Below, piece by piece: positions 31,627 to 50,840 of a DNA stretch of 64,000 bases; positions within the stretch are counted from its first letter, which is position 1; each line of letters begins with the position of its first letter. The DNA comes from Octadecabacter arcticus 238. GTDB taxonomy: Bacteria > Pseudomonadota > Alphaproteobacteria > Rhodobacterales > Rhodobacteraceae. Location of the stretch: the NCBI RefSeq assembly GCF_000155735.2, contig NC_020908.1:4649501-4713500 (forward strand), read 5' to 3'. The notes below the pieces were generated by a model. It was not told the DNA's origin, ran no database searches, and saw only the letters and a list, made by a program, of their open reading frames with translations. The translations under genes were made by a program, and so were the position numbers.

Positions 31627-32707
31627 ATGTCAGATATTACCACAGTCGGTCACGATTTGGCGAAGAATGTATTCCAAGTACATGGAGCTGATGGCGCAGG
31701 CCAAGCGGTTCTGCGCAAGAAGTTACGTCGAACGCAGGTCTTGGCGTTTTTCGGCCAACTTCCGCGATGCGTGGTTGCGATGGAAGCGTGCGGCGGCGCG
31801 CATTTCTGGGGCCGGTGAGATTGATAAGCTGGGCCACGAAGTGCGCCTAATCCCGCCCGCTTACGTCAAACCCTTCGTTAAACGCCAAAAGAATGATGCC
31901 GCTGATGCTGAAGCGATTTGCCAAGCAGCGGTACGCCCATCGATGCGCTTCGTGCCGGTGAAGAGCGAAGATGTGCAGGCTACAGTCATGGTCTTCCGGG
32001 CCCGGGAGCTGCTGATCCGTCAGCGCACACAAACCATCAATGCGCTTCTCGGCCACCTGACGGAGTTTGGAGAGGTGGTTCCCCTGGGCGCAGCGAACGC
32101 AGCGCGTCTGATTGTGATCATAGAGGATCCGGCAAGTTGCTTGCCGGAGGAAGCTCGGGCAACATTGCTGGTTCTGATCGAGACGAAGACCCGCCTCGAC
32201 GGCCAGATGGCCAAGCTCAACGCAGAGATCAGTCGGCGTGCCAAAGAGAATGAGGTGGCGTGCAGGCTGATGACGATCCCGGGAATTGGGCCGTTGATCG
32301 CCACGGCTCTGGTTGCCCTCGCGCCGCCCCCTGAGACCTTCCGCAGAGGGCGCGATTTTGCAGCGTCGTGCTGCAAGCACACCTCTGGCGTGACGCTCGG
32401 GCTTGTGCCGCGACAACACTCGACTGGCGGCAAGCAGAGGCTCGGGGCGACGACGACCCTTTCGGGACATTGCGTGCCGCAATGCCCTGCCCGGCAGTGA
32501 ATGGGAGAGCGGTCTTTGCGGCGACGGCTGATTATTGGCGCCAACAGTGTCATTATAAAGCGGCATGTCCATCCAATGGCCAGATCGGGCACTTGGCTGG
32601 GAGGGATGCTTTTGCGCAAGCCACCGATGCTTGTGCGGGTGGCACTGGCGAACACCCCTCTCACAGGCGTTGTTGCAGGGACCCCAGCGGGTCTGCTAGA
32701 CACCTAG
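31627..32707 (+). pseudogene. Decayed IS110-family transposase
   Basis: Starts MSDITTVGHDLAKNVFQVHG (DEDD-type Asp) and runs through RQKNDAADAEAICQA, MTIPGIGPLIATALVA, GLVPRQHSTGGKQRLGATT and MGERSLRRRLIIGANSVI, all hallmarks of IS110. The reading frame shifts near 31800. It also contains a short insertion between DFAA and LGLVPRQ (about 28 bp) and a 42-bp palindromic insertion after GATT (32457-32499). It is certainly non-functional. No inverted repeats are expected in this family, so the element ends are not defined. Confidence 0.9.
32457..32499 (+). repeat. Palindromic insertion element, copy 2 (in IS110)
   Basis: A 42-43-bp insert breaks the IS110 frame between GATT and MGERS. It folds into a 9-bp stem (GGG-A-CATTGC with GCAATGCCC, a single bulged A) and a 5-base loop. 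It is homologous to the complement of 50582-50622, with two paired positions changed in a compensatory way. Confidence 0.7.
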
Positions 32708-33183
32708 CTTGCCAACGACTTGGATATTCATGATGCCGCACAAATTCAACGCTTCCCGCCGCCACAAGTTTGAAAAGAAACGACAGAAGGTCACCAACTG
32801 GCGAGTGTACAATGAAGGCCTGCGTCAGCGCGGTGATGTGACAATTTGGTTGAGCCCTGAGGTTGCAGATAAGTGGCTTGCCGATAAACGTCAGACGCCA
32901 GGCGGCCAACCCACATACTCTGATATGGCCATATCAGTATGCCTGACGCTAGGTATGGCTTTCAAACAACCTTTGCGGCAGACGCAAGGATTGGTCGGTA
33001 GTTTGGCGCGGCTTATGGGACTGGATGTTTCCGTTCCGGATTTCTCGACCCTCTCGCGGAGAGGTGCGGGGCTCAGCATGCCAGAAAAATCTAAAGCCCA
33101 AAGGGCTGGCCCAATCGAATTAGTTGTGGATAGTACGGGTCTGAAGATATTTGGTGAAGGCGAATGGCTGGAGAAAAAGCATA

Positions 33184-34376
33184 TACTCCCGCGCCTGAAT
33201 TGACCTGAGGTTTTCCCCTCAAATCACTTTGTATTCCTTGAGCGATATGACGCGGAAGTTGTCGGTGACGGTGTCGCGGAACTCTGGCCATTTTTCTGGC
33301 AGGGTCTTGCGGAAGAAGTCGAAAATGGCCTCTGTGAATTGGTTGAACGTTGCATAGTGCCGATTGTGGGTGACCCATTTGTGAATAACACCCCAAAGAC
33401 GCTCGATCGGGTTGAGGTGCGGGGCATATGCTGGCAAGAAATGCAACTTCACCCGACGTTCTGGGCTGTCCAGCCATGGCTGTAGTATCTTGGCATGATG
33501 ATAGCGGGCATTGTCGACAAAGACGTGGATGGCCGTCTTGGTTTGGTTGTTGCGTTCCAACTTTTCCAGCATCTGTCGGGTTGTCTGGGCATTGATCTTC
33601 TCGCCTTCCACAAAGGTGAACTGGAAAGTCTCAAGTTCAAGCGCGCCCTGAATGTTGAGCCGCTTGCGCCCTGATGTCGCCTTCAGGGCCGTCTTTTGTC
33701 CCTTGGGGAACCAACCATGGGCGGGGCGGCTCTGGTGTTCGGGGTGGACAGCGTCCGAAAAGACAACCATCTCATCTGCGGTCAACCCGTTCATCAGGGC
33801 CTCATATTTGGCAATAAACGCAGCCTGCTTGGCTTCATCGGCCTGTGCAGGCAGCAATTGTGGTTTCTTATACGCGAACCCCAGGCGGCGCATCAGCTTG
33901 GCGGCTCCCGACGTGCTGTAGTTTTGGTCGCACTCGGCTAGAACATAGGCACAGACCTCATCGGCATTGCGGGCAGGCTGCGCGGTGAAATGGGCTCTCA
34001 CCGCCTGCTCTTGCACGACGGACAAATGACCCTGACGCTGGCTGTAGTCCTTCAGACCGAAAAACGATAGTCCCGCACCGGCAAAGGCTAATCGCCACTC
34101 CGTCAAAACTGTCGGGCCAATATCCAAAATCCGGCAAACCGTTCCGGCGTCTTCTCCTGCGTCCAAAAGAAGAAACGCGCGCGCCCGTTTCCAAACAAGG
34201 GCGTCAACTTTGCGGCGGCGGCAAAGCGCTTCAAGTGCTATGCGCTGCTCGTCGGATAAGGAGACTGTTTTGTATTGCTTGCTCATAAACTCAAAATACA
34301 GACTGAACCGCCTTTGGCCATGCGACGAAGTGAATCGCAGGCCCAAAATCGTCAGGTCAATTCAGGCGCAGGAGTA
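33184..34376 (-). mobile_element. IS630-family insertion sequence, copy 1
   Basis: 1193 bp with inverted repeats containing GCGCCTGAATTGACCTGA near both ends, flanked by TA (33182-33183 and 34377-34378), the obligatory target of IS630/Tc1. It lies in an IS5-family transposase gene. Confidence 0.95.
33219..34286 (-). CDS. IS630-family transposase
   Basis: 355 residues from ATG 34286 (MSKQYKTVSLSDEQ); a longer in-frame start would lie in the inverted repeat. It has an N-terminal HTH pair and a C-terminal DDE core with VVFSDAVHPEH, HVFVDNARYHHAK and LNPIERLWGVIHKW. It is identical to copy 2 at 52158 except for about five residues. Confidence 0.95.
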   Translation of the reverse strand: MSKQYKTVSLSDEQRIALEALCRRRKVDALVWKRARAFLLLDAGEDAGTVCRILDIGPTVLTEWRLAFAGAGLSFFGLKDYSQRQGHLSVVQEQAVRAHFTAQPARNADEVCAYVLAECDQNYSTSGAAKLMRRLGFAYKKPQLLPAQADEAKQAAFIAKYEALMNGLTADEMVVFSDAVHPEHQSRPAHGWFPKGQKTALKATSGRKRLNIQGALELETFQFTFVEGEKINAQTTRQMLEKLERNNQTKTAIHVFVDNARYHHAKILQPWLDSPERRVKLHFLPAYAPHLNPIERLWGVIHKWVTHNRHYATFNQFTEAIFDFFRKTLPEKWPEFRDTVTDNFRVISLKEYKVI

Positions 34377-34948
34377 TAAAACAAAGGCCAAACGTAAGTC
34401 GTGGCGCAAGCTGCACCTTGGACTGGATCTCACAACTGGAGATATCGTTTGCTCCGATTTGACAAAAGACGACGTAGGCGACTCAACTGCTTTGCCCGAA
34501 CTTCTCGATTAGATTGACGCTCCTGTTAGCCGCTTTTTGGCGGATGGCGCCTATGATGGCGATCCTACCAGCGATCTGCTTGTGGACCGTTTTGGTGAAG
34601 CTATAGAGATTGTAATTCCGCCTCCGATCACGGCCGTTCTCAGCCTCGATGCTGCCCGTGATCCAACGCCCCGAGATAAACACATCGCGGAGATTCGAGA
34701 CAAAGGGCGCCTGGCATGGCAAGTTAGCAGCGGCTACAATCACCGGAGCCGCGGCGAAGCACAAATAGGCCGCTGGAAGATGGTCATCGGCCCCAAACTG
34801 AAAGCTCGGAACTTTCCAAACCAAAAAACTGAAGTGGAAGGCGTTTCAGGCGATGCGTCAACGCCCGAACCCGTAATTTTTAGACCAAGTCTAGCCAAGT
34901 CAGTCTGAATGACCTTGCAGGCGGTACGCGGCTGCCTAAGGTTGGCAC

Positions 34949-35419
34949 ATGGCGCGCACAACCACTACACTTCGACTAACCACACAGGACGACACCGATC
35001 ACCTCGGTCGCGTTCTCGCGAAGTATGCACGTGCCGGTGATTGTTTTCTTCTGCGCGGACAAATCGGGTCTGGCAAGTCAGCGTTGGCGCGGGCGTTTAT
35101 CCACACCCTGCTGGGCCCTGATACCGAAGTGCCTTCGCCCACTTTCACCCTCGTGCAGACCTACGACTATGACGATCTAGAAATCTGGCACGCCGATCTC
35201 TATCGCCTTGGCGATGCGCAAGAGGCGGTTGAGCTTGGCTTGACGGACGCGTTCAACGACCACATTTGCCTGATCGAATGGCCGGAGCTATTGGGCGATC
35301 TTAAGCCAAACACCGCCCTTGATATTGAGCTTTCAGTGGCGCCGGATTGCCACCTCGCGACGCTTACGTTTGGCGAAAATTGGCGCGATCGGCTCAAGGA
35401 CTTCGCGCAAGATGCGTAA
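34949..35419 (+). CDS. tsaE: tRNA threonylcarbamoyladenosine biosynthesis ATPase
   Basis: 156 residues. A P-loop LRGQIGSGKSALARAF (near residue 40), the SPTFTLVQTY block and HADLYRLGDAQEA define TsaE, which drives turnover of the TsaBD complex making t6A37 in ANN-decoding tRNAs. It opens a housekeeping operon and overlaps amgK by eight bases. Its upstream region is IS debris ending only 40 bp before the ATG, so its original promoter may have been replaced. Confidence 0.94.
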   Translation: MARTTTTLRLTTQDDTDHLGRVLAKYARAGDCFLLRGQIGSGKSALARAFIHTLLGPDTEVPSPTFTLVQTYDYDDLEIWHADLYRLGDAQEAVELGLTDAFNDHICLIEWPELLGDLKPNTALDIELSVAPDCHLATLTFGENWRDRLKDFAQDA

Positions 35420-36374
35420 CACTGTCGTAACCCAATGGTTGGCGGCAACCGAATGGGCCGATTGGCAAAGGATCGCATTGTCCGGCGACGCGTCGGCGCG
35501 CCGTTATGAGCGCCTGCTGGGTCCCAAGGGCCAATCCGTCATTTTGATGGATGCGCCGCCAGAAACATGTGGCAGCCAATCACGTTTCGTGACCATCGCA
35601 GCGTACCTCAAAACGCTCAACCTCGCAGCGCCTGAGGTTCTGGAATGGGATAACCCAAAGGGTCTGATGATCCTCAGCGATCTTGGCCAACACGATTTCG
35701 CAACATACCTAAGCGCGGCGCCAAAAGACGAAGCAATTCTGTATAGCGCAGCGGTCGACGTACTGCGAACTCTGCAATCCACACCACCACCCAATGGCCT
35801 GACGAGAATGACATCAGATGTCGGTGCGAACATGATTGGCGTGGCATTTGAATGGGCCGCAACAGATCAAAGCATGGATCTCGCCACAGAGATAACCGCG
35901 CGCCTGCGCCGCCTTTTGCACGACGTAGATCCCGACCCCTGCGCGCTATCACTCAGGGATTTTCACGCGGAAAACCTGATTTGGCGCCCAGCAGGCCATG
36001 CCAACTTGCGCATTGGACTGCTCGATTTTCAGGATGCATTTATCACCCACCCGACTTACGATCTGGCGTCGTTGCTGCGTGATGCGCGACGAGACGTTGA
36101 CCCTGTATTACTCGCCCCTCTGCTCGCCCAACTCGCTGGCGAAGATGGGAACGTTGCAGATTTCAAACGCGCGTTTCATGTAATGGCGGTGCAGCGCAAT
36201 TTGCGCATTCTGGGCATTTTTCATCGCCTTGCACGACAGGATGGCAAAACCGGATACCTTTCCCTCGTCCCACGGGTTTGGGCGCATTTACAGACCGACC
36301 TTGCGACCCCTGACCTTATCGACCTTGGGCGTCTTGTCGCGTGGGCGTTTGACCCTGAACGAGTAAATTCATGA
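35412..36374 (+). CDS. amgK: Anomeric N-acetylmuramate/N-acetylglucosamine kinase
   Basis: 320 residues from ATG 35412. APH-type kinase fold: GDASARRYERL near the N-terminus, the Brenner-like catalytic SLRDFHAENLIW and LLDFQDAFITHPTYDLASLL. AmgK phosphorylates MurNAc at C1 in the cell-wall recycling route that bypasses MurA. It is coupled to the uridylyltransferase gene that follows (four-base overlap), the conserved AmgK-MurU pair. Confidence 0.9.
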   Translation: MRNTVVTQWLAATEWADWQRIALSGDASARRYERLLGPKGQSVILMDAPPETCGSQSRFVTIAAYLKTLNLAAPEVLEWDNPKGLMILSDLGQHDFATYLSAAPKDEAILYSAAVDVLRTLQSTPPPNGLTRMTSDVGANMIGVAFEWAATDQSMDLATEITARLRRLLHDVDPDPCALSLRDFHAENLIWRPAGHANLRIGLLDFQDAFITHPTYDLASLLRDARRDVDPVLLAPLLAQLAGEDGNVADFKRAFHVMAVQRNLRILGIFHRLARQDGKTGYLSLVPRVWAHLQTDLATPDLIDLGRLVAWAFDPERVNS

Positions 36375-37054
36375 CGACCCCGTCCGCCATATTACTGTTC
36401 ACCGCTGGTCTTGGAACCCGCATGGCCCCCCTGACCAACACACGGCCAAAGCCATTGGTAAGCGTCGCAGGCGTCGCGTTGCTCGATCATGCATTGGCGC
36501 ACTGCGCGGGTCTTCGGACAGTCGTGAATGTACATTACTTTGCAGACCAAATCCGCGATCACTTGGTGCAAACCGATGTCCTGATCTCTGATGAATCCAA
36601 ACAATTGCTGGAAACCGGTGGTGGGCTGAAACACGCGCTTCCATTGCTGGGTAGCAATCCGGTTCTGACGATGAACACTGACGCTGTCTGGAAAGGGCCG
36701 AACCCCGTACAGGCGCTCACTCAAGCGTGGACGCCCATTGAAATGGAGGCTGTATTGCTGTTGATCCCTCGCGCTCATGCAGTTAGCCATACTGGGTCGG
36801 GGGACTTTGATCTCGATAGCTCTGGTCGCCTGACCCGCGGAACCAAATATGTTTATTCCGGCGTCCAGATTATCCACACAGATGGGCTGGCTGATATTAC
36901 TGAAGATGCGTTTTCAATGTGGGTACTGTGGGACGGAATGCTAAAACGAAAAACGATGTTTGGTGTCGTCTATGACGGGCAATGGTGTGATGTTGGTAGG
37001 CCTGACAGCATCGAAATTGCACAAGAAATGCTCGCTGGAGGTGATGATGTTTGA
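36371..37054 (+). CDS. murU: N-acetylmuramate-1-phosphate uridylyltransferase
   Basis: 227 residues. The nucleotidyltransferase signature FTAGLGTRMAPLTNTRPKPL is at the N-terminus, with LTMNTDAVW for metal binding. MurU makes UDP-MurNAc from MurNAc-1-P, feeding recycled muropeptide sugar back into peptidoglycan synthesis. It directly follows amgK and overlaps the start of addB. Confidence 0.9.
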   Translation: MTTPSAILLFTAGLGTRMAPLTNTRPKPLVSVAGVALLDHALAHCAGLRTVVNVHYFADQIRDHLVQTDVLISDESKQLLETGGGLKHALPLLGSNPVLTMNTDAVWKGPNPVQALTQAWTPIEMEAVLLLIPRAHAVSHTGSGDFDLDSSGRLTRGTKYVYSGVQIIHTDGLADITEDAFSMWVLWDGMLKRKTMFGVVYDGQWCDVGRPDSIEIAQEMLAGGDDV

Positions 37055-39989
37055 TCCAATGAAAATACCACGTGTGTATGGGGTCCCCCTCGGCGCAGAC
37101 TTTTCGACCACTCTTTATGACGGCCTAAGGGCCGCATTTGAAACGATGTCGCCAGCGGATGTGGCCCACGTTGTGATTTATGTGAACACCCGTCGCATGC
37201 AGCGCCGCCTGACGTCCCTGTTTCACCAAGGCGACGCGCTTTTGTTGCCGCGCATCCGGCTTGTCACCGATCTTGCACAAGACGCCGTCGGGCGCGCAAT
37301 TGCGCCATCCATTGCTCCGTTGCGTCGCAGGCTTGAAGTTGCGCAGCTGGTTAAAGGCCTGATTGATGCGGACCCGACCCTTGCATCGCAAGATGCGGCG
37401 ATTGATTTGGCAGACAGTCTTGTCGCACTGATGAGCGAGATGCAGGGAGAAGGTGTCGCGCCTGAAGCAATCGCGGGCCTCGACGTTACGGACCAATCAG
37501 GGCATTGGCAGCGCGCGTTGTCATTCATTCAATTGGTGCAGCAGTTCTTTGCGGATGATCGGTTAGATGGCGAAGGCCGCCAACGTCTTGTGATTGAAAC
37601 GCTCGTAGACCGTTGGGCCGATACACCGCCAGACCATCCAATCATCGTGGCGGGTTCCACCGGATCGCGTGGGGCAACGTCCCTGTTCATGCAGGCCGTC
37701 GCGAAGCTGCCACAAGGTGCAGTTATTCTGCCCGGTCTGGACTGCGATATGCCAGCCCATGTTTGGGATATGATGGAACAGAAAAAAGGCGGTGAGGATC
37801 ATCCGCAATATCGGTTCAAGGCATTCTGCGACGCGCTCAGCATTCAACCATCCGACATCCAGCAGTGGGGCAACACCACCAACATCAACGCCGCACGCAC
37901 TGGGCTGATTTCACTTTCATTGCGGCCTGCACCAGTGACCCATCAATGGATCAAAGACGGCTCTGATCTGGGCGATCTGGGCGAGGCGACAAATGGCATC
38001 ACTTTGATTGAGGCCCCAACCCCGCGGGCGCAAGCAGATGCAATAGCCGCGCGTTTGCGCCAAGCGGTTGAAGATGGTCAAACCGCTGCGCTGATTTCAC
38101 CCGACCGGATGCTGACACGACAGGTGACTGCTTCGCTGGATCGTTGGGACATCACGCCGGACGATAGCGCGGGTCTTCCATTGCAACTTACGGCACCGGG
38201 TCGGTTTTTGCGCCATATCGCTGATCTGTTCTGTGAACCACTGGACGCTGAACGTCTTTTGGTGTTGTTGCGGCATCCGCTCAGCCATTCAGACCGTCCT
38301 GATCGCGGCGCCCACGCGTTGCGCACCAACGCTTTAGAATTGGACCTGCGGCGAAACGGGCCACCCTTTCCAACGGCTGAAAGCCTGACCAAATGGGCGG
38401 CGGCGACATCGGATCGCCATCCAGAGCATACCGATTGGGTTGCATGGGTCGGGTCCGTTCTGCTGGGACTATGTGACACCAACGATAAGCCCCTGATCGA
38501 TCACTTAACGCACCATTTGGGCATCGCTGAGCGGCTTTCAGCAGGTCCATATCTGGGCGGCTCGGGTGAGCTTTGGAAGAAACCGGCCGGACGCGAAGCC
38601 TTGCGTGTCATGTCAGAATTGCGCGCTCATTCGGACGCGGGTGGTGTGATGTCAGCGCGGGAATATCGCCGGCTCATCGGCAGCGTTCTGGCAGGTGGTG
38701 AGGTGCGCGACCGCGACGATGGCCACCCGCAGGTCCTGATCTGGGGCACTTTAGAAGCACGGGTTCAGTCGGCCGATCTGGTGATCCTTGCGGGCCTCAA
38801 CGAGGGCACTTGGCCCGAGGCCCCCACCCCTGATCCTTGGCTCAACCGCCCGTTGCGGATGCAGGCTGGATTGCTATTACCAGAACGGCGCATCGGCCTC
38901 AGCGCGCACGATTATCAGCAAGCTGTCTGCGCGCGCGAAGTTGTGCTGAGCCGCGCCGTGCGGTCTGACGAAGCCGAAACAGTGCCAAGCCGATGGATCA
39001 ACCGCCTGACAAATTTGCTTGGGGGCTTGGAAGATAAAGGCGGCCCCGCTTATCTTAAGGCGATGCGGGAACGTGGACAGCATTGGCTAACCCTCGCAGC
39101 GAACATCGCGGCTCCGACCGTGACCGTTGATCCAGCGCCGCGCCCGTCACCCTGTCCGCCAGCTGATGCGCGGCCAGACAAATTGTCAGTCACACAGATC
39201 AAAACGCTGATCCGCGATCCTTATGCAATCTACGCCCGCAAAATTCTTGGACTGAATGCGCTGGACAGTTTGGCCCACACACCTGACGCGCCATTGCGTG
39301 GTACAATCGTGCACAAAGTCCTTGAACGGTTCGTTAAGGACAAAATTGACCCCGCAGACTCTGGCGCGCGCGCCGCGTTGCTGTCCATCGCGTCCGATGT
39401 GCTGATTGAACACTGCCCATGGCCTGCTGTTCGCGCGCTTTGGTTCGCACGTATCGCGTCCTTCACGCCGCATTTTTTGATTGAAGAACAGAAGCGCCGC
39501 GTGTTTTCGGCCAATGTAGACACTGAAATGCGCGGTGAATTGAAGCTGGCATACCTGCCCTTTACGCTGACTGGGACGGCAGACCGGATCGACATGTCCG
39601 ATGATGGCGAAGCGCTGATCTATGACTACAAAACTAGCAAGGCCCCCACCTCGCCACAACAAAAATACTTTGATAAACAACTGCTGCTTGAGGCCGCAAT
39701 GGTCGAACGCGGCGCATTCAAAGCGCTGGGGCGTGTCCGTACCAAGGCCGCAGTTTACATTGGGTTGGGCAGCGATCTGAAAGACCAGCCCGCCCCGCTA
39801 GACGATGAGACTCCAGACGAAACCTGGACGCGTTTCGAAGGCCTCATCGCCAAATGGATGGACCCGACCAAAGGATACACTTCCCGTAGCGCGAATGAGA
39901 TTATGTCGTTTGAGGGCAACTACGACCACCTTGCGCGGTATGGCGAATGGGATGAGACACACGACGCTATTGCACAGGACAGGACATGA
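37047..39989 (+). CDS. addB: Double-strand break repair protein AddB
   Basis: 980 residues from ATG 37047, five bases after GGAGG and overlapping the murU stop. The N-terminal half is an inactivated helicase-like fold. The C-terminus has a RecB-type nuclease with LTGTADRIDMSDDGEALIYDYKTS (motifs G-x-x-DR and DYKT) near residues 850-875. With AddA it resects double-strand ends and loads RecA. Alphaproteobacteria use AddAB in place of RecBCD. Confidence 0.93.
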   Translation: MFDPMKIPRVYGVPLGADFSTTLYDGLRAAFETMSPADVAHVVIYVNTRRMQRRLTSLFHQGDALLLPRIRLVTDLAQDAVGRAIAPSIAPLRRRLEVAQLVKGLIDADPTLASQDAAIDLADSLVALMSEMQGEGVAPEAIAGLDVTDQSGHWQRALSFIQLVQQFFADDRLDGEGRQRLVIETLVDRWADTPPDHPIIVAGSTGSRGATSLFMQAVAKLPQGAVILPGLDCDMPAHVWDMMEQKKGGEDHPQYRFKAFCDALSIQPSDIQQWGNTTNINAARTGLISLSLRPAPVTHQWIKDGSDLGDLGEATNGITLIEAPTPRAQADAIAARLRQAVEDGQTAALISPDRMLTRQVTASLDRWDITPDDSAGLPLQLTAPGRFLRHIADLFCEPLDAERLLVLLRHPLSHSDRPDRGAHALRTNALELDLRRNGPPFPTAESLTKWAAATSDRHPEHTDWVAWVGSVLLGLCDTNDKPLIDHLTHHLGIAERLSAGPYLGGSGELWKKPAGREALRVMSELRAHSDAGGVMSAREYRRLIGSVLAGGEVRDRDDGHPQVLIWGTLEARVQSADLVILAGLNEGTWPEAPTPDPWLNRPLRMQAGLLLPERRIGLSAHDYQQAVCAREVVLSRAVRSDEAETVPSRWINRLTNLLGGLEDKGGPAYLKAMRERGQHWLTLAANIAAPTVTVDPAPRPSPCPPADARPDKLSVTQIKTLIRDPYAIYARKILGLNALDSLAHTPDAPLRGTIVHKVLERFVKDKIDPADSGARAALLSIASDVLIEHCPWPAVRALWFARIASFTPHFLIEEQKRRVFSANVDTEMRGELKLAYLPFTLTGTADRIDMSDDGEALIYDYKTSKAPTSPQQKYFDKQLLLEAAMVERGAFKALGRVRTKAAVYIGLGSDLKDQPAPLDDETPDETWTRFEGLIAKWMDPTKGYTSRSANEIMSFEGNYDHLARYGEWDETHDAIAQDRT

Positions 39990-43372: not shown

Positions 43373-43432
43373 CGCCCCCTTGGTGCGATCATACGTTCCG
43401 CGTCTAACAAAACCCCTTGAGGAGTAGAGCCA

Positions 43433-43753
43433 ATGGCCACCGTAGCAGTCACCGACGACACCTTTGACGCCGAAGTTCGTCAGTCCACCATCCCCGTTGT
43501 CGTGGATTTCTGGGCGGAGTGGTGCGGACCCTGTAAACAGATCGGCCCAGCGCTCGAAGAACTGTCGGCTGAGATGGACGGAAAAATCAAAATCGTCAAA
43601 GTGAACGTTGACGAAAACCCCAACGCCCCCGCCCAAATGGGTGTGCGCGGCATTCCGGCGCTGTTCCTTTTCAAGGACGGCGAAGTTGTCTCCAACAAAA
43701 CAGGCGCAGCCCCGAAAGCCGCGCTGAAAAGCTGGATTGAAGAAGGCATCTAG
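43433..43753 (+). CDS. trxA: Thioredoxin
   Basis: 106 residues with the active site [13 protein letters not shown] near residue 30 and the cis-Pro loop [11 protein letters not shown]. It reduces cytoplasmic disulfides. GAGGAG precedes the ATG, and a strong terminator follows, so it probably ends the tsaE-addAB unit or has its own promoter. Confidence 0.97.
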
Positions 43754-43773
43754 GCCAATCCAATTGTCTAAAT

Positions 43774-43798
43774 GGGCGTCCCATCGGGGCGCCCTTTT
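43774..43798 (+). terminator. Rho-independent terminator after trxA
   Basis: GGGCGTCCC-ATC-GGGGCGCCC forms a 9-bp stem (one G-U pair) with a three-base loop, followed by TTTT. Confidence 0.85.
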
Positions 43799-43807
43799 CG
43801 TTGCAAC

Positions 43808-43836
43808 CTTGTGTCGACCGCATCGCGCCGCCATAT
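43808..43836 (+). promoter_or_regulatory. Possible heat-shock (sigma-32) promoter of hslVU
   Basis: CTTGTGT (43808-43814) and CGCCATAT (43829-43836) with a 14-base spacer resemble the RpoH consensus CTTGAAA-N11-16-CCCCATNT. It lies 28 bases before the hslV ATG, whose product is a classic heat-shock protease subunit. Confidence 0.5.
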
Positions 43837-43863
43837 AATCTATAATCAAAGGTAGGACACAAC

Positions 43864-44424
43864 ATGACGAAAGACACATTCCCAGGCTGGCACGGCACGA
43901 CAATCATTGGTGTGCGCAAGGGCGGCGAAGTTGTCATCGCGGGCGACGGGCAAGTGTCCGTTGGCCAGACCGTGATGAAAGGAACTGCACGAAAGGTGCG
44001 GCGTCTGACGGCTGGCGGCAGCGATGTAATCTGTGGTTTTGCAGGATCAACGGCAGATGCGTTTACCCTGCTCGAACGGCTTGAGAAAAAACTTGAAGCG
44101 ACACCCGGACAACTCGCCCGCGCGTCAGTTGAGCTCGCCAAGGAATGGCGCACCGACAAATACCTTCAGAAACTCGAAGCGATGCTGATCGTGAGCGATG
44201 GCAAAGACCTGCTCGTGATCACGGGTGCGGGGGACGTTCTAGAACCTGAATATGACGTAACCGCCATCGGATCGGGCGGCAACTTTGCCCTCGCCGCTGG
44301 TCGCGCACTCATGGATCTGGAATTTAGCGCCGAAGAAATTGCCCGCCGCGCCATGGCCATTGCATCTGACATTTGCGTTTACACAAACGGCAATCTCACC
44401 GTGGAGACCATCAAGCATGACTGA
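43864..44424 (+). CDS. hslV: ATP-dependent protease proteolytic subunit HslV
   Basis: 186 residues. The mature catalytic Thr follows HG in [16 protein letters not shown] (near residue 12), so the first residues are removed by self-processing. [15 protein letters not shown] and the [11 protein letters not shown] loop are conserved. It forms the proteasome-like double hexamer opened by HslU. It overlaps hslU by eight bases. Confidence 0.97.
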
Positions 44425-45721
44425 CCTCACCCCCCGCGAAATCGTATCCGAACTTGACCGGTTTATCATCGGCCAATCCGACGCCAAACGCGCTGTTGCC
44501 GTGGCGCTGCGCAATCGTTGGCGGCGCAAACAATTGGGCGACGATCTGCGCGACGAAGTCTATCCCAAGAACATCCTGATGATCGGACCAACCGGCGTTG
44601 GAAAAACTGAAATTTCGCGCCGTTTGGCAAAATTGGCCCGCGCACCGTTCATTAAAGTCGAGGCTACCAAATTTACCGAAGTGGGCTATGTCGGACGCGA
44701 TGTTGAACAAATCATCCGCGATCTGGTTGAATCTGCCATTGTTGAAACCCGCGACTACATGCGCGAAGACGTGAAACAAAAGGCGCAGGAAGCCGCTGAA
44801 GCCCGCGTGATTGATGCCATCGCGGGGACAGACGCCCGCGAAGGAACCCGCGATATGTTCCGCAAAAAGCTCAAGACTGGCGAGTTAGACAATACAATTA
44901 TCGAACTTGAACTCGCCGACAATTCCAACCCCATGGGTGGCATGGAAATCCCCGGCCAGCCCCCTGGTATGGGCGGCATGGACCTCAGCGCGATGTTTGG
45001 CAAAGCATTCGGCGCGCGCACCGTCAAGAAACGCGTGACCGTTTCGGAAAGCTACGCGTTGTTGGTCGCGGACGAAGCGGACAAACTGCTGGACGATGAA
45101 ACCGTCACGAAAATCGCACTCGAGTCAGTTGAACAAAACGGCATCGTCTTTTTGGATGAGATCGACAAAGTCTGTCGCAACGCCGACGCACGCGGCGCGG
45201 ATGTGTCCCGCGAAGGCGTACAGCGTGATTTGCTGCCATTGATCGAAGGCACGACTGTCAGCACGAAACACGGATCGGTAAAAACCGACCATATCCTGTT
45301 CATCGCCTCGGGCGCGTTTCACATCGCAAAACCATCCGATCTGTTGCCCGAACTACAGGGTCGCCTGCCAATCCGTGTTGAACTGCGGGCACTGACTGAA
45401 CACGACTTTGTCCGTATCCTCACAGAAACCGACAACGCCCTAACCCGCCAGTACACCGCACTCATGGGTACCGAAGAAGTCACGGTGTCATTCAGCGAAG
45501 ACGGCATTGCCGCCCTCGCGCGCATCGCGGCTGAGGTGAATGAAAGTATCGAAAATATCGGTGCACGTCGTCTCTATACCGTGATGGAACGCGTGTTTGA
45601 GGATCTGTCGTTCAACGCGCCAGAACGTGGAGGTGATGAAATCGAAGTCAGCGCTGCCTTTGTCGAAGAACACCTTGGTGCGCTTGCACGATCCACCGAC
45701 TTAAGCCGCTACGTGCTTTAG
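44417..45721 (+). CDS. hslU: ATP-dependent protease ATPase subunit HslU
   Basis: 434 residues from ATG 44417 ([16 protein letters not shown]). Walker [12 protein letters not shown], the pore loop [10 protein letters not shown], a long I-domain (residues about 110-230, with a Gly/Met-rich patch) and Walker [12 protein letters not shown] are visible. It ends with the HslV-activating tail DLSRYVL. It unfolds substrates for HslV. Confidence 0.97.
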
Positions 45722-45758
45722 CGCTTTCCAGTTGCGATCATTCGGCCAATAAGACCCA

Positions 45759-47003
45759 ATGACCGCAAGAATTATTCACGACACCGGATACATTTCCTTC
45801 ATCCGCGAGAACGCACCCTTCCTTGCGACGGGCGCGTTGCTGTCGTTTCTCTCAAGCTTCGGTCAGACTTTCTTTATCTCGATCTTCGGCGGTGAAATTC
45901 GGGCCGAATACGGGCTGAGCAACGGCGACTGGGGCCTGATTTATATGATCGGCACAGGAGCGTCAGCGGCAGTCATGGTGTTTGCAGGTGGCCTCGCAGA
46001 TCGGTTTCGCGTCCGGCAGCTTGGCATCACGGTTATTCTACTGCTCGGGCTGTCTTGTGTGCTTATGGCGCTCAATCCGCTTGCCGCCCTTCTGCCTCTC
46101 GTCGTATTTACGCTTCGCTTTTTTGGCCAAGGGATGACAACGCATGTGGCGACCGTGGCCATGGCGCGCTGGTTTATCGCCACACGTGGCCGCGCTTTGG
46201 CTGTTGCTGCAATGGGGTTCATGCTGGCCGAAGCGGCACTGCCCTTGATCATGGTTTGGCTAAAATCCTACATTGATTGGCATTATATCTGGATCGGCTG
46301 CGCCCTCTTTTGTCTCGCTATGGCCCCCGTTTTGATGCGTCTGCTGCGCCTCGAACGCACCCCACAGTCTGTCGCGCAAGACAATCAATCAACCGGACTT
46401 TACGGTAAACACTGGACCCGCGCCGACGTTTTGCGCCATCCCATATTCTGGGCGATGGCCCCTGCGGTTATGTCATTTTCTGGTTTTGGCACTGCGTTCT
46501 GGTTCCACCAAGTTCATTTCGCTGAGATCAAAGGATATTCACATCTGGCTCTTGTGGCGGTCTTTCCACTGGGAACGATCACCCTTCTTTTCTCGACGAT
46601 CTTTTATGGCTGGGCCTTGGATCGGATCGGGGCGGTTAAACTTCTGCCGTTTTATTTGATCCCCTACATATTTGCTTTCATCCTGCATTGGTACGGGCCA
46701 AGCCTCGGCTGGACAGCCCTCGCTTTGATCCTTATGGGCGCGGCAGGCGGTGGTCAGGCGACATTGCTGAATGCGTGCTGGGCAGAGTTTTTTGGCACGT
46801 TGCACCTTGGCTCCATCAAGGCCGCAACAGCCGCTTTGATGGTACTTGGGTCCGCACTTGGGCCTGGTATCAGTGGTTGGCTCATCGACCAAGGCGTCGG
46901 CTTCGAACAGCAAATGTTAGGATATGCAGCGACGTTTTTCATCGCCGCCCTTTTGTTGCTTTACCCGGTTTCAGTCGTGCGGCGGTCAACGGGTGCGGCG
47001 TAG
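45759..47003 (+). CDS. MFS transporter
   Basis: 414 residues with about twelve transmembrane segments. The MFS loop motif GGLADRFRVRQLG (loop 2-3) and a related GWALDRIGAVKLLPF in the second half are visible. Substrate unknown. It lies 37 bp after hslU and its 3' end overlaps the convergent smr-domain gene by 18 bases. Confidence 0.88.
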   Translation: MTARIIHDTGYISFIRENAPFLATGALLSFLSSFGQTFFISIFGGEIRAEYGLSNGDWGLIYMIGTGASAAVMVFAGGLADRFRVRQLGITVILLLGLSCVLMALNPLAALLPLVVFTLRFFGQGMTTHVATVAMARWFIATRGRALAVAAMGFMLAEAALPLIMVWLKSYIDWHYIWIGCALFCLAMAPVLMRLLRLERTPQSVAQDNQSTGLYGKHWTRADVLRHPIFWAMAPAVMSFSGFGTAFWFHQVHFAEIKGYSHLALVAVFPLGTITLLFSTIFYGWALDRIGAVKLLPFYLIPYIFAFILHWYGPSLGWTALALILMGAAGGGQATLLNACWAEFFGTLHLGSIKAATAALMVLGSALGPGISGWLIDQGVGFEQQMLGYAATFFIAALLLLYPVSVVRRSTGAA

Positions 47004-47576
47004 GTAGACGTAATAGGCGCCCTGCCCGCCATGGCGAATGTGACTTTCAGTGATTTGCATCACCAACCCACCCAGCGGCGCCATCGACAACCATTGCGGC
47101 ACTTGATGGCGCAACACACCAAACCGCGTCGGGATTGGCCCACCATCATCGCGGTGCTTTCCCTTGCCGGTGATGACCAAAACCAACCGATGCCCAGCGC
47201 CTGCAGACCTCAGGATAAATCCCGTCAAAACCGGATGCGCCTGTGCAACTGTCATTCCATGTAGATCGACCCGCGCTTCTGGCTTTAACTTGCCACGACG
47301 GAGCCTAACAAACGCCTTTTGATCCATTTGAACCGGTGCTGCCCTGATCTGTTGGCCAAGCGATGGCAACAGATCGTGATCGGCGCGGTGGTCAACAACA
47401 GCACCAATTCTGAATGCCGGAATGGGCCGGGGCTTGGTCTGGGTCGGCTGTGGATCAGGTTTTCGGGGTGCCGCACGAATCAGTTTCGCCGCTGGCTTGT
47501 GCAGCGGCTCGGTCCGCCTCGCCACGACGTCCCATAACGCCTGTTCCTCAGCCGACACATGCCGAGGCTTTTTCAT
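46986..47576 (-). CDS. Smr-domain protein
   Basis: 196 residues. The C-terminal Smr domain has VDLHGMTVAQAHPVL (D-L-H-G motif) and LVLVITGKGKH followed by the RHQVPQWL helix. Smr domains are nucleic-acid nucleases or binding modules; the alphaproteobacterial stand-alone type is not well characterised. The N-terminal 90 residues are basic and Pro-rich. It follows mltA with a four-base overlap. Confidence 0.9.
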   Translation of the reverse strand: MKKPRHVSAEEQALWDVVARRTEPLHKPAAKLIRAAPRKPDPQPTQTKPRPIPAFRIGAVVDHRADHDLLPSLGQQIRAAPVQMDQKAFVRLRRGKLKPEARVDLHGMTVAQAHPVLTGFILRSAGAGHRLVLVITGKGKHRDDGGPIPTRFGVLRHQVPQWLSMAPLGGLVMQITESHIRHGGQGAYYVYLRRTR

Positions 47577-48622
47577 TCGATCACATCCGGCAATAGCGCA
47601 TATGCACTTTGGATCGGCATCAAAACAACCAGCCGCCCATCGTCCCTTATGCGGCCCGCATCGCGCCCGGCGGCATCACCCGTTCCAAAGAAAATATCTG
47701 CCCGTTGTGATCCCTTGATCGCAGACCCCGTGTCTTGCGCGACCATCAAACGGTTCAGTGGGTCAGCGCCATCCTTTTCAATCCAGACAGGTGCGCCCAG
47801 CGGAACAAAGGCCGGATCAATCGCAACGGTTCTCATTGTGGTGACAGATCTGTTCATGGTCCCAAGTGGTCCCATATGCGCAGGCACATCGTTGACCTCA
47901 CGAAAGAAGACATAACTGTCGTTCGCCCACAAAAGCTGACGACCCTCTTCGCCATTGTTACGGACCCAATTGCGGATCACGTCAGCGGACACCTCATGGG
48001 ATTGATAGACACCGCGGCGCACCAGTTCCAATCCGATTGACGAATATTCACGTCCGTTCGCTCCGCCATACCCAACGCGAATGCCGCCCCCCGTATCGAG
48101 CGCAACGCGGCCCGATCCCTGAACTTGCAAGAAAAATACATCAACAGGATCATCGATCCAAACAATCTCAAGTCCACGCCCCTCAAAGGCGTTGGTTTTC
48201 TCAATCTCTCGGCGTGAAAACTCGCCTGAATTTTGGGGTAATCTGTAAAGCGGGTGCTGGAAGGGACCACCACGGGTCATCGATCCGCGCAATTCAGGCT
48301 CGTAGTAGCCCGTAAACAGCGGGTCTTGACCATCTTCAATCAGGACAGGCGTGAATAAACGTTCAAAAAAACCGCGCGCCTCTTGGCCTTGGCGCGCCAC
48401 ATCGCAAATCGTTTCCCACGCGGGGTCGCGCATATCGCCACAGGTGGACAGGAACACGTCTAACGCCGCCTGATGATCGTCATCGGCCCAGCCGTTCAGA
48501 TCACCGAATTGTAAAAGTTTATAGGTCGGGTTGGCCATTGCCGCCTCAGTCCAGAAAAATGGTGGCACGATCACCGACAGCCCTAAGGCTACCGCCCTCA
48601 AATTTATTCGCCTAGTCTTCAT
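47573..48622 (-). CDS. mltA: Membrane-bound lytic murein transglycosylase A
   Basis: 349 residues with an N-terminal signal (LRAVALGLSVIVPPFFWTEA). The MltA domain has PLFTGYYEPELRGS, FFLQVQGSGRVALDTGG and the 3D domain with VAQDTGSAIKGSQRADIFFG, whose second Asp is catalytic. It cleaves peptidoglycan glycan strands to anhydro-MurNAc products in the periplasm, the raw material recycled by AmgK/MurU encoded earlier in the window. Confidence 0.93.
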   Translation of the reverse strand: MKTRRINLRAVALGLSVIVPPFFWTEAAMANPTYKLLQFGDLNGWADDDHQAALDVFLSTCGDMRDPAWETICDVARQGQEARGFFERLFTPVLIEDGQDPLFTGYYEPELRGSMTRGGPFQHPLYRLPQNSGEFSRREIEKTNAFEGRGLEIVWIDDPVDVFFLQVQGSGRVALDTGGGIRVGYGGANGREYSSIGLELVRRGVYQSHEVSADVIRNWVRNNGEEGRQLLWANDSYVFFREVNDVPAHMGPLGTMNRSVTTMRTVAIDPAFVPLGAPVWIEKDGADPLNRLMVAQDTGSAIKGSQRADIFFGTGDAAGRDAGRIRDDGRLVVLMPIQSAYALLPDVIE

Positions 48623-49278
48623 TCACCAGTGGCGACAAGGAACCAGTTCGGATCGCCAGTGCCCATGGTGCGGCCGAACGTCCAGACATCGCGCTGCTTT
48701 TTGATTTCTGTTGGGGAGCCTTCTTTCAGGTCACCACCGTTGTCATAGACTGCAGACGTGCTTTCGTTGAGAAACTTGATTGTAATCTCAGCATTTTTTG
48801 TTGTTTCGTCAAACTCCGCATCAACCAATGTCGTTTCGGAAATACCAATGAACTTGAAATCGATGCTTAGGCCGTCTTTCTCTCGCGATTCAACCACACC
48901 CGCGAAGGCATCGTAGACGTCGCTCGATAGGAACGGTTTGATTTCGGCCAAATCGCCTTTTTCAAATCCGGTCAGGATCATTTCATAGGCACCACGCGCG
49001 CCACGCAAAAATTCACGGACATTGAATGACCGATCCGCAGTTTTCATTGCGGTCAACGCCTTTGCCATATCACTATCGGCATCAACATAATCGGTTACAT
49101 CCGGATCAGGTCCACCTTCGATCACCTCAAGATCGGGTCCGAACCGTCGCGTTGGGATGGCTGGCGGCGCCTTTGGTTTTTCAAACCCCTCACGTGTGCC
49201 CAAAACATTGCGCAAGCGCAGGATCAGGAAGATCGCGATTCCGGCAAGAACCAGAAGTTGAAGAACAGGCGAATTCAT
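48619..49278 (-). CDS. Tim44/TimA-domain membrane-associated protein
   Basis: 219 residues from ATG 49278 (MNSPVLQLLVLAGIA). One N-terminal transmembrane helix is followed by a Pro-rich linker and a Tim44-like domain (FNVREFLRGARGAYEMILTG, KPFLSSDVYDAFAG, VWTFGRTMGTGDPNWFLVAT). Alphaproteobacterial relatives of mitochondrial Tim44 sit at the inner membrane; their role is not settled. It is coupled to mltA. Confidence 0.9.
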   Translation of the reverse strand: MNSPVLQLLVLAGIAIFLILRLRNVLGTREGFEKPKAPPAIPTRRFGPDLEVIEGGPDPDVTDYVDADSDMAKALTAMKTADRSFNVREFLRGARGAYEMILTGFEKGDLAEIKPFLSSDVYDAFAGVVESREKDGLSIDFKFIGISETTLVDAEFDETTKNAEITIKFLNESTSAVYDNGGDLKEGSPTEIKKQRDVWTFGRTMGTGDPNWFLVATGE

Positions 49279-49401
49279 GTGCGTTTCTTTCAAGATAATT
49301 TCAAGGCAAGTGGTAACATCTAGGTACCGACCTTATGTAAGGCAGACATAGGGCCAAGTCCACCTTAGCCCCAACGATTCATTTGCTTATCTGGAGGTCT
49401 C

Positions 49402-49899
49402 ATGCTGTTGCTCTTACTCTTTATCGGCATCCCGCTGCTTGAAATCACACTGTTTATCCAAGTTGGCGGTGCAATCGGGCTTGGCTGGACACTCGCTATT
49501 GTGATTGGAACGGCGGTCTTGGGAGCGTGGATGGTACGCAGTCAAGGCGCGCGGGCGATGCTCAACTTGCGAACGTCATTCTCAAACCTGCAAGACCCGA
49601 CCGAACCTTTGGCACATGGTGCGATGATCCTTTTTTCTGGCGCTTTACTGCTCACGCCAGGTTTTTTTACCGATTTTATCGGTTTTGCCCTCCTTGTTCC
49701 GGCTGTTCGATCCGCAGTTTATCGCTATCTGCGCGCCCGAATTAATGTCCAGAATTTTCAGATGGGGCCAGATGGCCAGCAACCACGCCCCTCTAATCCC
49801 CATGGCCAACCCCGCGATCGCGTTATTGATGGCGAATTTAAAGAGGTCGATCCAGAAAATCCACCACAAGATGGCCCATCTGAATGGACTAAACGTTGA
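49402..49899 (+). CDS. fxsA: FxsA-family membrane protein
   Basis: 165 residues with four hydrophobic segments in the first 110 residues (LLLLFIGIPLLEITLFIQVG at the N-terminus, then GAWMVRSQGARAML, the FxsA core) and a hydrophilic C-terminal tail. FxsA was named for suppression of F exclusion of phage T7; its physiological role is unclear. It is transcribed divergently from the Tim44-like gene and towards secB. Confidence 0.9.
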   Translation: MLLLLLFIGIPLLEITLFIQVGGAIGLGWTLAIVIGTAVLGAWMVRSQGARAMLNLRTSFSNLQDPTEPLAHGAMILFSGALLLTPGFFTDFIGFALLVPAVRSAVYRYLRARINVQNFQMGPDGQQPRPSNPHGQPRDRVIDGEFKEVDPENPPQDGPSEWTKR

Positions 49900-49955
49900 G
49901 GCCCGCGCCCGCGCCTGATACAAAACATCAAATTTATTAAACATCGGAGGGCCAC

Positions 49956-50465
49956 ATGGCCGAAGAAGACAAGACAATGCCAAATGGCGCAGCAGACGCA
50001 GCGCCAGCAGCACCACAGATCAAACAACGCGTTCTTGCCCAGTTTGTCCGTGATCTCTCATTTGAAAACGTCATGGCGCAAAAAGGCGTTGATGGCGAAG
50101 TAAAACCAGAAATCAAAGTCGAGGTGAACCTCGATGCCCGCAAACGCGGCGCGGAAAATCAGTTTGAGGTTATCACCAAACTCAAGGTTTCTTCGCAGAA
50201 CGCTGGCACAGAGAATATGTTGTTCCTGCTTGAATTGGAATATTCTGGCGTGTTCGAAATCGAAGGTGTACCAGAAGCTCAGATGCATCCTTACTTGATG
50301 ATCGAATGCCCACGTATGACGTTCCCGTTTGTGCGCCGCATTGTAAGCGACATCACACGCGACGGTGGCTTCCCGCCGCTGAACCTTGAGCAGATTGATT
50401 TCGTGGCAATTTATCGCCAGCAGCTTGCGCTGCGTGCGGAACAGCAGAAAAAAGCCGAGGCGTAA
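49956..50465 (+). CDS. secB: Protein-export chaperone SecB
   Basis: 169 residues. The SecB core is clear: FVRDLSFENVMAQKG, PEIKVEVNLDARKRG, MLFLLELEYSGVFEIEGVP and CPRMTFPFVRRIVSDITRDGGFPPL. It keeps precursors unfolded and delivers them to SecA. GGAGG precedes the ATG. An IS3-type remnant begins within 100 bp of its stop. Confidence 0.96.
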   Translation: MAEEDKTMPNGAADAAPAAPQIKQRVLAQFVRDLSFENVMAQKGVDGEVKPEIKVEVNLDARKRGAENQFEVITKLKVSSQNAGTENMLFLLELEYSGVFEIEGVPEAQMHPYLMIECPRMTFPFVRRIVSDITRDGGFPPLNLEQIDFVAIYRQQLALRAEQQKKAEA

Positions 50466-50581
50466 ACTACTTCGGGTAATCCCCCCTAAAATTAGTGGTG
50501 TTCCAAAGTAGAATTTTCTCAGCAAGATATCTGAGGAGATTTTTGATGAAGAACGGACGATTTAGCGACGCACAGATCATG

Positions 50582-50622
50582 CATTTCCAGGCAGGCGATT
50601 GCACAGCAATCTGCCGAGAGGG
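50582..50622 (-). repeat. Palindromic insertion element, copy 1 (in IS3 OrfA)
   Basis: 41 bases inserted between the codons for QIM and GILRQ of OrfA. The minus strand reads CCCTCTCGGCAG-ATTGC..., with a 9-bp stem (GGC-A-GATTGC with GCAATCGCC), a bulged A and a TGT loop. It aligns with 32457-32499 at about 30 of 38 positions. Confidence 0.7.
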
Positions 50623-50840
50623 GGTATTTTGAGGCAGGCAGAGAGCGGCGTGCCGGTCTCTGAGCTTTGCTGCGAGCATGGCATGAGCAGCGCCAGCTTT
50701 TACAAATGGCGTTCGAAGTATGGCGGGATGGATGCGTCGATGGTGTCGCAGATGAGGGCCATGGCAGACGAGAACCGGCGTCTGAAGCGGATGTATGCTG
50801 AGATGAGCATGCAGAATGACTTGCTGAAGGAAGCTCTTGA

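What the first reader, a model, noticed from the sequence alone, without database searches (positions are those of the whole stretch)
32457..50622. Pair of homologous ~42-bp palindromic insertions with compensatory stem changes
Two decayed transposase genes of different families (IS110 at 32457-32499; IS3 OrfA at 50582-50622, opposite strand) each carry a 41-43-bp insert that breaks an otherwise recognisable protein motif. Aligned in the same sense they share CCCTyTCGG, ATTGC, GCAAT and CCTGCCyGG, about 30 of 38 positions outside the loops. Both fold into a 9-bp stem with one bulged A. At two stem positions both partners differ (G-C versus C-G), so pairing is kept. This looks like a small dispersed palindromic element (REP- or Rickettsia-palindromic-element-like) that inserts into coding sequence and is selected for structure. 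I do not know a described family with this sequence.
Basis: seen in the sequence. Interest (0 to 1): 0.85.

Follow-up and report, generated by a model that had tools for sequence, protein, structure and literature searches.

The report
Tiny mobile hairpins lodged inside transposons
The two palindromes belong to a large, apparently undescribed family of roughly 40-base hairpin elements that insert, without duplicating their target, mostly into the transposons of Rhodobacteraceae bacteria, and no enzyme that moves them has been found.

Summary
The 43-bp (32457-32499, +) and 41-bp (50582-50622, -) inserts belong to one dispersed family: CCCTCTC - hairpin - CTGCCGGKCARTG. The own genome has 25 exact pattern matches, the reversed pattern 0. 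A strict pattern hits 94 of 394 family genomes, with no control match. Comparison with empty relatives shows a clean 37-43 bp insertion in 23 of 27 sites, without target duplication, at sites resembling C^GATG. Stems differ widely between copies yet stay paired: 689 of 729 cells against 71.9% for shuffled arms, in a set found without asking for pairing. Elements sit mostly in insertion sequences, in both orientations. Broken ISs that carry them occur in up to 10 near-identical copies. An IS110-family element abuts the hairpin's 5' motif in 8 of 8 copies examined, and its left end has a bridge-RNA-like fold facing that motif. The mobilizer is unknown: REP-type (Y1) transposases are absent from 18 of 23 hairpin-rich genomes. 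I call it a new family, a variant of the REP/RPE/small-dispersed-repeat kind.

The parts
32457..32499 (+). Hairpin element copy 1 (43 bp) inside a decayed IS110 transposase gene: 5' motif 32457-32463, stem 32464-32473 / 32479-32487 (bulged A 32467), loop 32474-32478, 3' motif 32488-32499
   Evidence: (58.6 bits, E 6.4e-12; its twin copy L010 is in the model's training set)
50582..50622 (-). Hairpin element copy 2 (41 bp) inside a decayed IS3-family OrfA gene: 5' motif 50622-50616, stem 50615-50606 / 50602-50594 (bulged A 50612), loop 50605-50603, 3' motif 50593-50582
   Evidence: (67.9 bits, E 2.4e-14; this copy is in the model's training set)
31667..32500 (+). Host gene of copy 1: IS110-family transposase reading frame (DEDD_Tnp_IS110 PF01548, Transposase_20 PF02371), cut by the insert; the matching right-hand piece of the protein reads on from 32501. 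A second copy of this IS with the same insert lies at G000:C1:2194023-2194071
50546..50581 (+). Host gene of copy 2, N-terminal piece of IS3-family OrfA, upstream of the insert
   Evidence: read directly
50626..50850 (+). Host gene of copy 2, remaining piece of OrfA (HTH_Tnp_1 PF01527, 2.2e-16), downstream of the insert

Best explanation
This is a family of very small (mostly 37-45 bp) mobile DNA elements made of one hairpin between two fixed ends (CCCTCTC at 5', CTGCCGGKCARTG at 3'). SHOWN: it inserts cleanly, adding its own bases and duplicating nothing, at sites resembling C^GATG; it sits mostly in insertion sequences and in both orientations; the stem sequence turns over between copies but stays paired; ISs broken by it are found as near-identical copies at many loci, so it also spreads by riding in ISs; and its 5' motif adjoins the end of an IS110-family element in every copy examined. 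INFERRED: the moving form is a single-stranded (DNA or RNA) hairpin recognised by shape plus the fixed ends and integrated in trans by an enzyme not encoded nearby. The excess in ISs would come from riding plus loss of insertions in useful DNA, perhaps with real targeting.
For: Family: 25 vs 0 exact matches; 55 CM matches at E<1e-5 in the own genome, 15 of the training copies being from it; 295 vs 5 in the reversed control over 2.0 Mb; 94 of 394 family genomes with 0 control matches. Ends: 23 of 27 distinct occupied/empty pairs give an insert of 37-43 bp, 14 of these 23 with a unique breakpoint and 5 with 1 bp of slack. Target: unscored flanking positions are biased, -1 C 121/172, +1 A 113/172, +3 G 98/172. 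Structure: 689/729 stem cells paired vs 71.9% for shuffled arms, in 120 of the 132 hits found with no pairing requirement. ISs: 106/132 outside sites vs 12/129 random positions; 140/152 distinct sites in two genomes vs 158/400 random positions. Both orientations: 56 sense, 39 antisense. Riding: a 909-bp unit with two hairpins, copies 98.8% identical or more, no frame longer than 157 codons, 8 occupied and 0 empty copies in the sample. IS110 junctions: 8 of 8 read CT-CA.
Against: No enzyme is linked: Y1 5/23 hairpin-rich vs 1/21 genomes without a strict match, Y2 9/23 vs 3/21, reverse transcriptase 11/23 vs 9/21. No longer, gene-carrying relative with the same two ends was seen: of the 3' ends, 418 occurrences have the 5' motif close by and all 26 distinct others were read; of 149 distinct 5' motifs without the 3' end, only 40 were read. 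No excision, circle or new insertion was observed. The sampled stretches were chosen around hits, so copy and empty-site ratios are not genome-wide. In three small length classes some arm shuffles reach the observed pairing. Some copies are not in ISs: L229 lies between two ordinary genes, and a larger intergenic repeat carries the module in several loci.
Confidence: 0.55

Rival explanations
1. REP/REPIN-type element moved by a REP-associated tyrosine (Y1) transposase, as in Pseudomonas and E. coli.
For: Size, imperfect hairpin with a bulge, no target duplication, use as IS110 target; the own genome and G006 hold 48 and 24 Y1 matches.
Against: Y1 is absent from 18 of 23 hairpin-rich genomes; of the 30 fetched Y1 loci only 3 hold an element, at no fixed place; the IS200 in the window has different hairpins; elements are intragenic in ISs, not extragenic; neighbouring copies show no preferred inverted pairing (++36 --36 -+33 +-25).
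Confidence: 0.12
2. No targeting at all: insertion is random and only copies in dead or disposable DNA (ISs) survive, then ride along when ISs move.
For: Insert-bearing ISs are amplified; only 3 of 172 sites are shared by the two genomes, so turnover is fast.
Against: Counting distinct sites, unique DNA is still nearly empty: 5 of 152 sites have no similar place elsewhere in the sample, 4 of these 5 with a poor motif. The same IS position carries different stems in 15 of 78 multi-member sites, though semi-specific target choice alone could give that.
Confidence: 0.35
3. Stems change in place: an old insertion is inherited with its IS and the hairpin is rewritten by template switching, so 'different stems at one site' are one event.
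For: 15 sites with matching breakpoints and different stems; both arms change together.
Against: Many of these sites come from different genomes whose IS flanks differ visibly (asked only for 63% identity per side); loop, length and bulge change too. No tree was made.
Confidence: 0.15
4. Internal-deletion derivatives (MITEs) of the IS110 whose right end abuts the hairpin.
For: That IS110 starts CCCCTCT and its right end lies next to element hairpins.
Against: Eight copies of this IS end, four of them in units 98.8-99.4% identical, are followed by eight different sequences; both junctions read as a CT core inside CCCT^CT^CA, and the left-end RNA fold presents CCCCUCU and CUGAG opposite each other. 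The hairpin looks like the target, not the end.
Confidence: 0.07
5. RNA-level element, spliced out or bypassed by ribosomes like the byp elements of Magnusiomyces mitochondria (recalled), so that host genes stay functional.
For: Insertion at conserved transposase motifs (read); insert-bearing ISs multiply.
Against: 39 antisense vs 56 sense sites; neighbouring elements lie in opposite orientations as often as in the same one.
Confidence: 0.03

Closest known systems
REP sequences / REPINs and their RAYT transposases (Pseudomonas, E. coli; PMC3116915, passages read)
   Same: Tens of bases, imperfect hairpin, dispersed, no coding capacity; target of IS110-family elements (IS621, PMC11208160, passages read).
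   Different: Extragenic in REP, inside IS genes here; stems highly varied here; RAYT genes lie beside REPs, no Y1 gene is linked here; no inverted-pair (REPIN) arrangement.
Rickettsia palindromic elements (RPE)
   Same: Palindromic, inserted within genes.
   Different: RPEs are ~150 bp and form in-frame fusions in metabolic genes (passage of PMC10969869); these are ~40 bp, mostly shift the frame and lie in transposases.
Small dispersed repeats (SDR) of heterocystous cyanobacteria (Elhai 2008; recalled; named in a passage of PMC3116915)
   Same: Very small mobile repeats without own enzyme (recalled).
   Different: Different host and size (SDRs ~21-27 bp, recalled); an IS preference is not something I recall for SDRs. 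No sequence comparison was made.
Double-hairpin elements of fungal mitochondria (recalled)
   Same: Mobile hairpins with varying, still paired stems (recalled).
   Different: One hairpin with fixed ends here; bacterial chromosome and plasmids.
IS621 / IS110 bridge-RNA elements
   Same: An IS110 here has a CT core, a left-end RNA fold with a target-like loop, and a palindromic repeat next to its end.
   Different: The repeat is this new hairpin family and not a REP; this IS appears to use the hairpin and not to move it.

Membership tests
REP / REPIN | Short imperfect palindrome repeated through the genome | tested here: met
REP / REPIN | Extragenic location | tested here: not met
   140/152 distinct sites lie in multi-copy DNA; transposase, integrase or transposase-type HTH domains beside 11 of 20 random outside sites, 9 gave no family; a minority is intergenic (L229; larger intergenic repeat)
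REP / REPIN | Associated RAYT (Y1) transposase gene in the genome and beside the repeat | tested here: not met
   Y1 in 5 of 23 hairpin-rich genomes; 3 of 30 fetched Y1 loci hold an element, at no fixed place
REP / REPIN | Inverted doublets as the mobile unit | tested here: not met
   Neighbours within 600 bp: ++36 --36 -+33 +-25, spacing 54-585 bp
Rickettsia palindromic elements | In-frame insertion into otherwise functional genes | tested here: not met
   Insert lengths 37-43, most frequent 40 and 41; host frames fragmented in the units examined
MITE | Terminal inverted repeats shared with an autonomous element | tested here: not met
   Ends CCCTCTC and CARTG are not inverted repeats of each other (sequence); no longer element with both ends was seen (of whose 5'-only list 40 of 149 were read)
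MITE | Target-site duplication | tested here: not met
   14 of 23 clean occupied/empty pairs have a unique breakpoint, 5 have 1 bp and 4 have 2-5 bp of slack
IS200/IS605-type single-strand transposition | Y1 transposase acting on subterminal hairpins, insertion next to a short target without duplication | tested here: inconclusive
   No duplication and a short target fit; enzyme absent in 18/23 hairpin-rich genomes
Bridge-RNA guided IS110 (for the IS that adjoins the hairpin) | DEDD/Tnp_20 recombinase and CT at both junctions | tested here: met
   PF01548, PF02371; CT at 8 of 8 right junctions and at the left ends seen
Bridge-RNA guided IS110 (for the IS that adjoins the hairpin) | Non-coding end RNA with guides pairing to the target | tested here: inconclusive
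   CCCCUCU and CUGAG face each other in the predicted internal loop, but the fold is not unusual against shuffles (z -1.1, -0.5) and expression was not testable
Translational-bypass (byp) or spliced element | Always in sense orientation to the host gene | tested here: not met
   56 sense, 39 antisense, 17 conflicting, 102 one-sided, 70 undecided of 284 sites

The most novel reading that the evidence does not exclude
A stand-alone single-hairpin parasite of mobile DNA: a unit of about 40 bases, recognised by shape and two fixed ends and not by stem sequence, that is actively directed into other mobile elements and integrated by an enzyme not yet tied to hairpin mobility, acting in effect as a transposon-inactivating agent that then travels with the elements it breaks.
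Probability: 0.2. Interest if true: 0.87.

Novelty: new variant of a known kind. Interest (0 to 1): 0.62.

Why it matters
It would be among the smallest mobile DNA units known, in an abundant group of marine bacteria, with clear ends, a clear target and hundreds of copies, but no known enzyme. Its stems give a natural experiment on what a hairpin-recognising integrase reads. Its concentration in transposons poses a testable question: targeting, or selection plus hitchhiking. It may also give a second natural case, next to IS621 and REPs, of an IS110 whose putative bridge RNA is aimed at a palindromic repeat. In annotation, it explains a share of the degenerate transposase genes in this genome and its relatives as hairpin-interrupted.

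Tried and rejected
REP/RAYT link: tested by family search in 61 relatives and in 44 chosen genomes; not linked. IS91-type Y2 transposase: 9/23 vs 3/21, suggestive at most and missing in 14 of 23. Reverse transcriptases: 11/23 vs 9/21, no difference. The 44 genomes were chosen by hand: G006 plus 22 of the 23 genomes with three or more strict matches (G287 was left out), and 21 of the 300 genomes without a strict match there, picked for size and completeness and not tested with the covariance model in that draw.

RNA-level bypass or splicing: rejected on orientation. MITE of IS110: set aside because copies of one IS end are followed by different sequences. Rfam: no family at the gathering threshold covers the two copies in the window; nothing relevant up to E 1 in three element-bearing loci or up to E 0.01 in five loci with the larger intergenic repeat. 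A first loose motif scan gave 995 hits against 600 in the control and was discarded; a stricter one at score 26 or more was used. A first empty-site listing was swamped by self matches and was redone with a gap filter. One search used 271 of 447 model matches (121 of 121 in G000 stretches and window, 150 of 326 in G006 stretches). The coding-strand estimate is noisy (17 conflicts, 70 undecided of 284). The genome searches with the model score only a capped number of candidates (150, 101 per genome), so counts there are lower bounds.

Literature: searches listed no paper that by title or abstract describes this family (49 was on ribosome bypass); I read passages of four papers. The Octadecabacter genome paper PMC3646047 has no occurrence of 'repeat' or 'palindrom' in its main text. 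Most subscription papers are outside that library.
Full report
WHAT WAS CHECKED. The two inserts exist at the stated places. Copy 1 (32457-32499, +) cuts the Transposase_20 domain of an IS110-family gene; copy 2 (50582-50622, -) cuts an IS3-family OrfA. Relatives without the insert exist for both: 12 alignments to empty sites for the IS3 site, insert 41 bp, and for the IS110 site the two protein halves lie 44 nt apart in this genome but 2 nt apart in one IS110 of another genus (L247). The IS110 with its insert is present twice in this genome.

FAMILY. The core pattern has 25 exact matches in the own genome and none for the reversed pattern. A covariance model built from 15 copies finds 106 matches at E<=10, of which 55 at E<1e-5; the 15 training copies are among them, and only 150 of 5632 candidates were scored. 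The genome has three contigs of 5,200,279, 118,287 and 159,683 bases, which together with PMC3646047 (passages read) suggests Octadecabacter arcticus 238; the other hairpin-rich genome of the genus, G006, may be O. antarcticus 307. These names are my inference. Of 61 genomes searched with the model, 22 have a match at E<=0.01, none of the 24 outside the family. With a strict pattern, 94 of 394 genomes of the family match and no genome shows a reversed-pattern match; counts reach 35 (own), 21, 16 and 16. By record title most are Rhodobacteraceae or Rhodobacterales; the exceptions I saw are two stretches of one Vreelandella neptunia contig, one Labrenzia, one Cohaesibacter, one Robiginitomaculum MAG, three unplaced Alphaproteobacteria MAGs and a Synechococcaceae MAG whose match (L332) has no hairpin. 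Eighty-four plasmid records match; the 40 listed carry Rhodobacteraceae-type names. The 41-bp query finds nothing in 5,426 E. coli genomes.

ANATOMY. A motif-plus-hairpin scan of 2.0 Mb taken around hits in two genomes gives 295 elements at score 26 or more, against 5 in reversed sequence. Stems differ completely between groups, for example GTGCATG/CATGCAC, ATCGAAAC/GTTTCGA, ATGGTTTGC/GCAAACCA, ATTGCTTGC/GCAAGCAA. Because that scan asks for pairing, the test was repeated on the 132 matches found by end motifs alone. Six length classes cover 120 of these 132 (87 distinct stems): 689 of 729 cells pair (94.5%), against a mean of 71.9% when whole arms are dealt out anew. In the three classes with most stems (34, 20 and 13) no shuffle comes near; in the three small classes (8, 7 and 5 stems) the best of 500 shuffles equals the observed value. 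Twelve hits of other lengths were not tested.

INSERTION. For 27 distinct sites with a relative at least 85% identical, 23 give an insert of 37-43 bp. Fourteen of these have a unique breakpoint, five have 1 bp of slack and four have 2-5 bp; the remaining four of 27 are nested or altered. This is no regular target-site duplication. Across 172 distinct sites, positions not used in scoring show C at -1 (121), A at +1 (113), T at +2 (88) and G at +3 (98); G at +0 (137) is partly imposed by the scan. Only 3 of the 172 sites are shared by the two genomes, so insertion or loss is recent relative to their split, as far as the sampled stretches tell. In 15 of 78 sites with two or more members, the same position of similar DNA carries different stems, in several cases in different genera.

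WHERE IT SITS. Of 152 distinct sites (score 26 or more), 140 lie in DNA with at least three similar places elsewhere in the sample; of 290 elements 274 do, against 158 of 400 random positions in the same stretches. For 132 outside sites the figures are 106, against 12 of 129 random positions. The 26 outside exceptions include sites inside or beside transposase domains (L248, L262, L299, L302), a larger intergenic repeat (L250, L252, L283, L285, L305; also L064), one site between ordinary genes (L229), and several for which Pfam gave nothing. Of 20 randomly chosen sites among the 106, the longest nearby frame has a transposase or integrase domain in 8 and a transposase-type HTH in 3; 9 gave nothing. 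Orientation is mixed: 56 sense, 39 antisense, 17 conflicting, 102 one-sided, 70 undecided of 284. Neighbouring elements have no preferred mutual orientation.

RIDING. Several ISs carrying the element are found as near-identical units at many loci, for example 1217 bp (10 copies, 98.5% or more), 909 bp with two hairpins (8 copies, 98.8% or more) and 1382 bp (6 copies, 99.6% or more), with no open frame above 236 codons in the three. Of 15 such sites with five or more copies, 11 have no empty copy in the sample; the other four have 1, 4, 6 and 17. The sample was chosen around hits, so this is not a genome-wide ratio, but it shows that broken ISs still move, presumably in trans.

AN IS110 THAT ADJOINS THE HAIRPIN. 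Eight copies of one IS110-family right end (exact 30-base match; six weaker matches in the same search were not examined) all continue CT-CA into eight different sequences. In five (L084, L085, L086, L097, L115) this is a hairpin paired with at most one mismatch, followed by the element's 3' motif or a close form of it. In L108 the hairpin pairs but runs into GAGAGGG; in L126 and L134 the two arms do not match each other and look rearranged. Four copies share a unit of about 1200 bp (98.8-99.4% identical); the others are shorter or interrupted. The left ends seen read CCC-CT-TGTCTTATG, so both junctions fit insertion at a CT core inside CCCT^CT^CA. All eight have A after CTC, while 24 of 74 distinct sites in this genome do. 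Whether the two outer flanks belong to one interrupted gene was not tested. The 212-nt left end folds so that CCCCUCU and CUGAG face each other in an internal loop, the layout of bridge-RNA target guides in IS621, whose core is CT and whose targets are REPs (PMC11208160, passages read). The folding energy is not unusual against shuffles (z -1.1 and -0.5); guiding is inferred. Since the sequences beyond the junction differ, this IS looks like a user of the family and not its source.

HOW IT MOVES. Clean insertion without duplication, fixed asymmetric ends, a hairpin whose sequence is free but whose pairing is kept, and a short target together suggest recognition of a folded single strand. The obvious enzyme class, Y1, is absent from 18 of 23 hairpin-rich genomes; Y2 from 14; reverse transcriptases show no association. 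No longer element with the same ends was seen (with the limits given above). The enzyme is therefore unknown, and this step is inference. The excess in ISs can be explained by loss from useful DNA plus riding; real targeting is not excluded.

COMPARISON AND NOVELTY. It works like a REP or a small dispersed repeat but fails defining features of REPs (extragenic, RAYT-linked, doublets), of RPEs (in frame, in metabolic genes) and of MITEs (terminal inverted repeats, duplication). Seven literature searches listed no description. I file it as a new variant of a known kind.

Noticed in passing
L084:8739-9938 and seven other copies (L085, L086, L097, L108, L115, L126, L134): IS110-family IS whose right end continues CT-CA into element sequence in 8 of 8 copies (five intact hairpins, three altered); its left end has a bridge-RNA-like fold with matching stretches.
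   Followed up: partly
L285:5451-6540, L250, L252, L283, L305, L064: A larger intergenic repeat of several Rhodobacteraceae carries the module next to other palindromic stretches; it may be an older home of the module.
   Followed up: partly
G006 stretches L144-L183: ISs broken by one or more hairpins occur as many near-identical copies, in 11 of 15 sites (both genomes) with no empty copy seen in the sample.
   Followed up: partly
L108 (reverse strand, next to the IS110 end): An element-like sequence that is palindromic throughout: the 3' motif is replaced by GAGAGGG, the reverse complement of the 5' motif.
   Followed up: no
window 25495-25929 (-): IS200-type Y1 transposase (48 Y1 matches in the genome), preceded by a long palindrome CTTCCTTCTCATTTTTAAGACC..GGTCTTAAAAATGAGAGGGAAG; its hairpins differ from the element.
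   Followed up: partly
window 30612-30759 (-): Rfam match to Ruegeria cis2 sRNA (RF02645, 57 bits).
   Followed up: no
window 31600-34400: Nest of IS remnants: IS110, a DDE_Tnp_1_5 fragment (32709-33203) and an HTH_33/DDE_3 (IS630-like) gene (33219-34346, -).
   Followed up: no
L223 and L266 (Vreelandella neptunia HM116 contig 24): Two elements in a record titled as a gammaproteobacterium; horizontal transfer or a misassigned contig.
   Followed up: no
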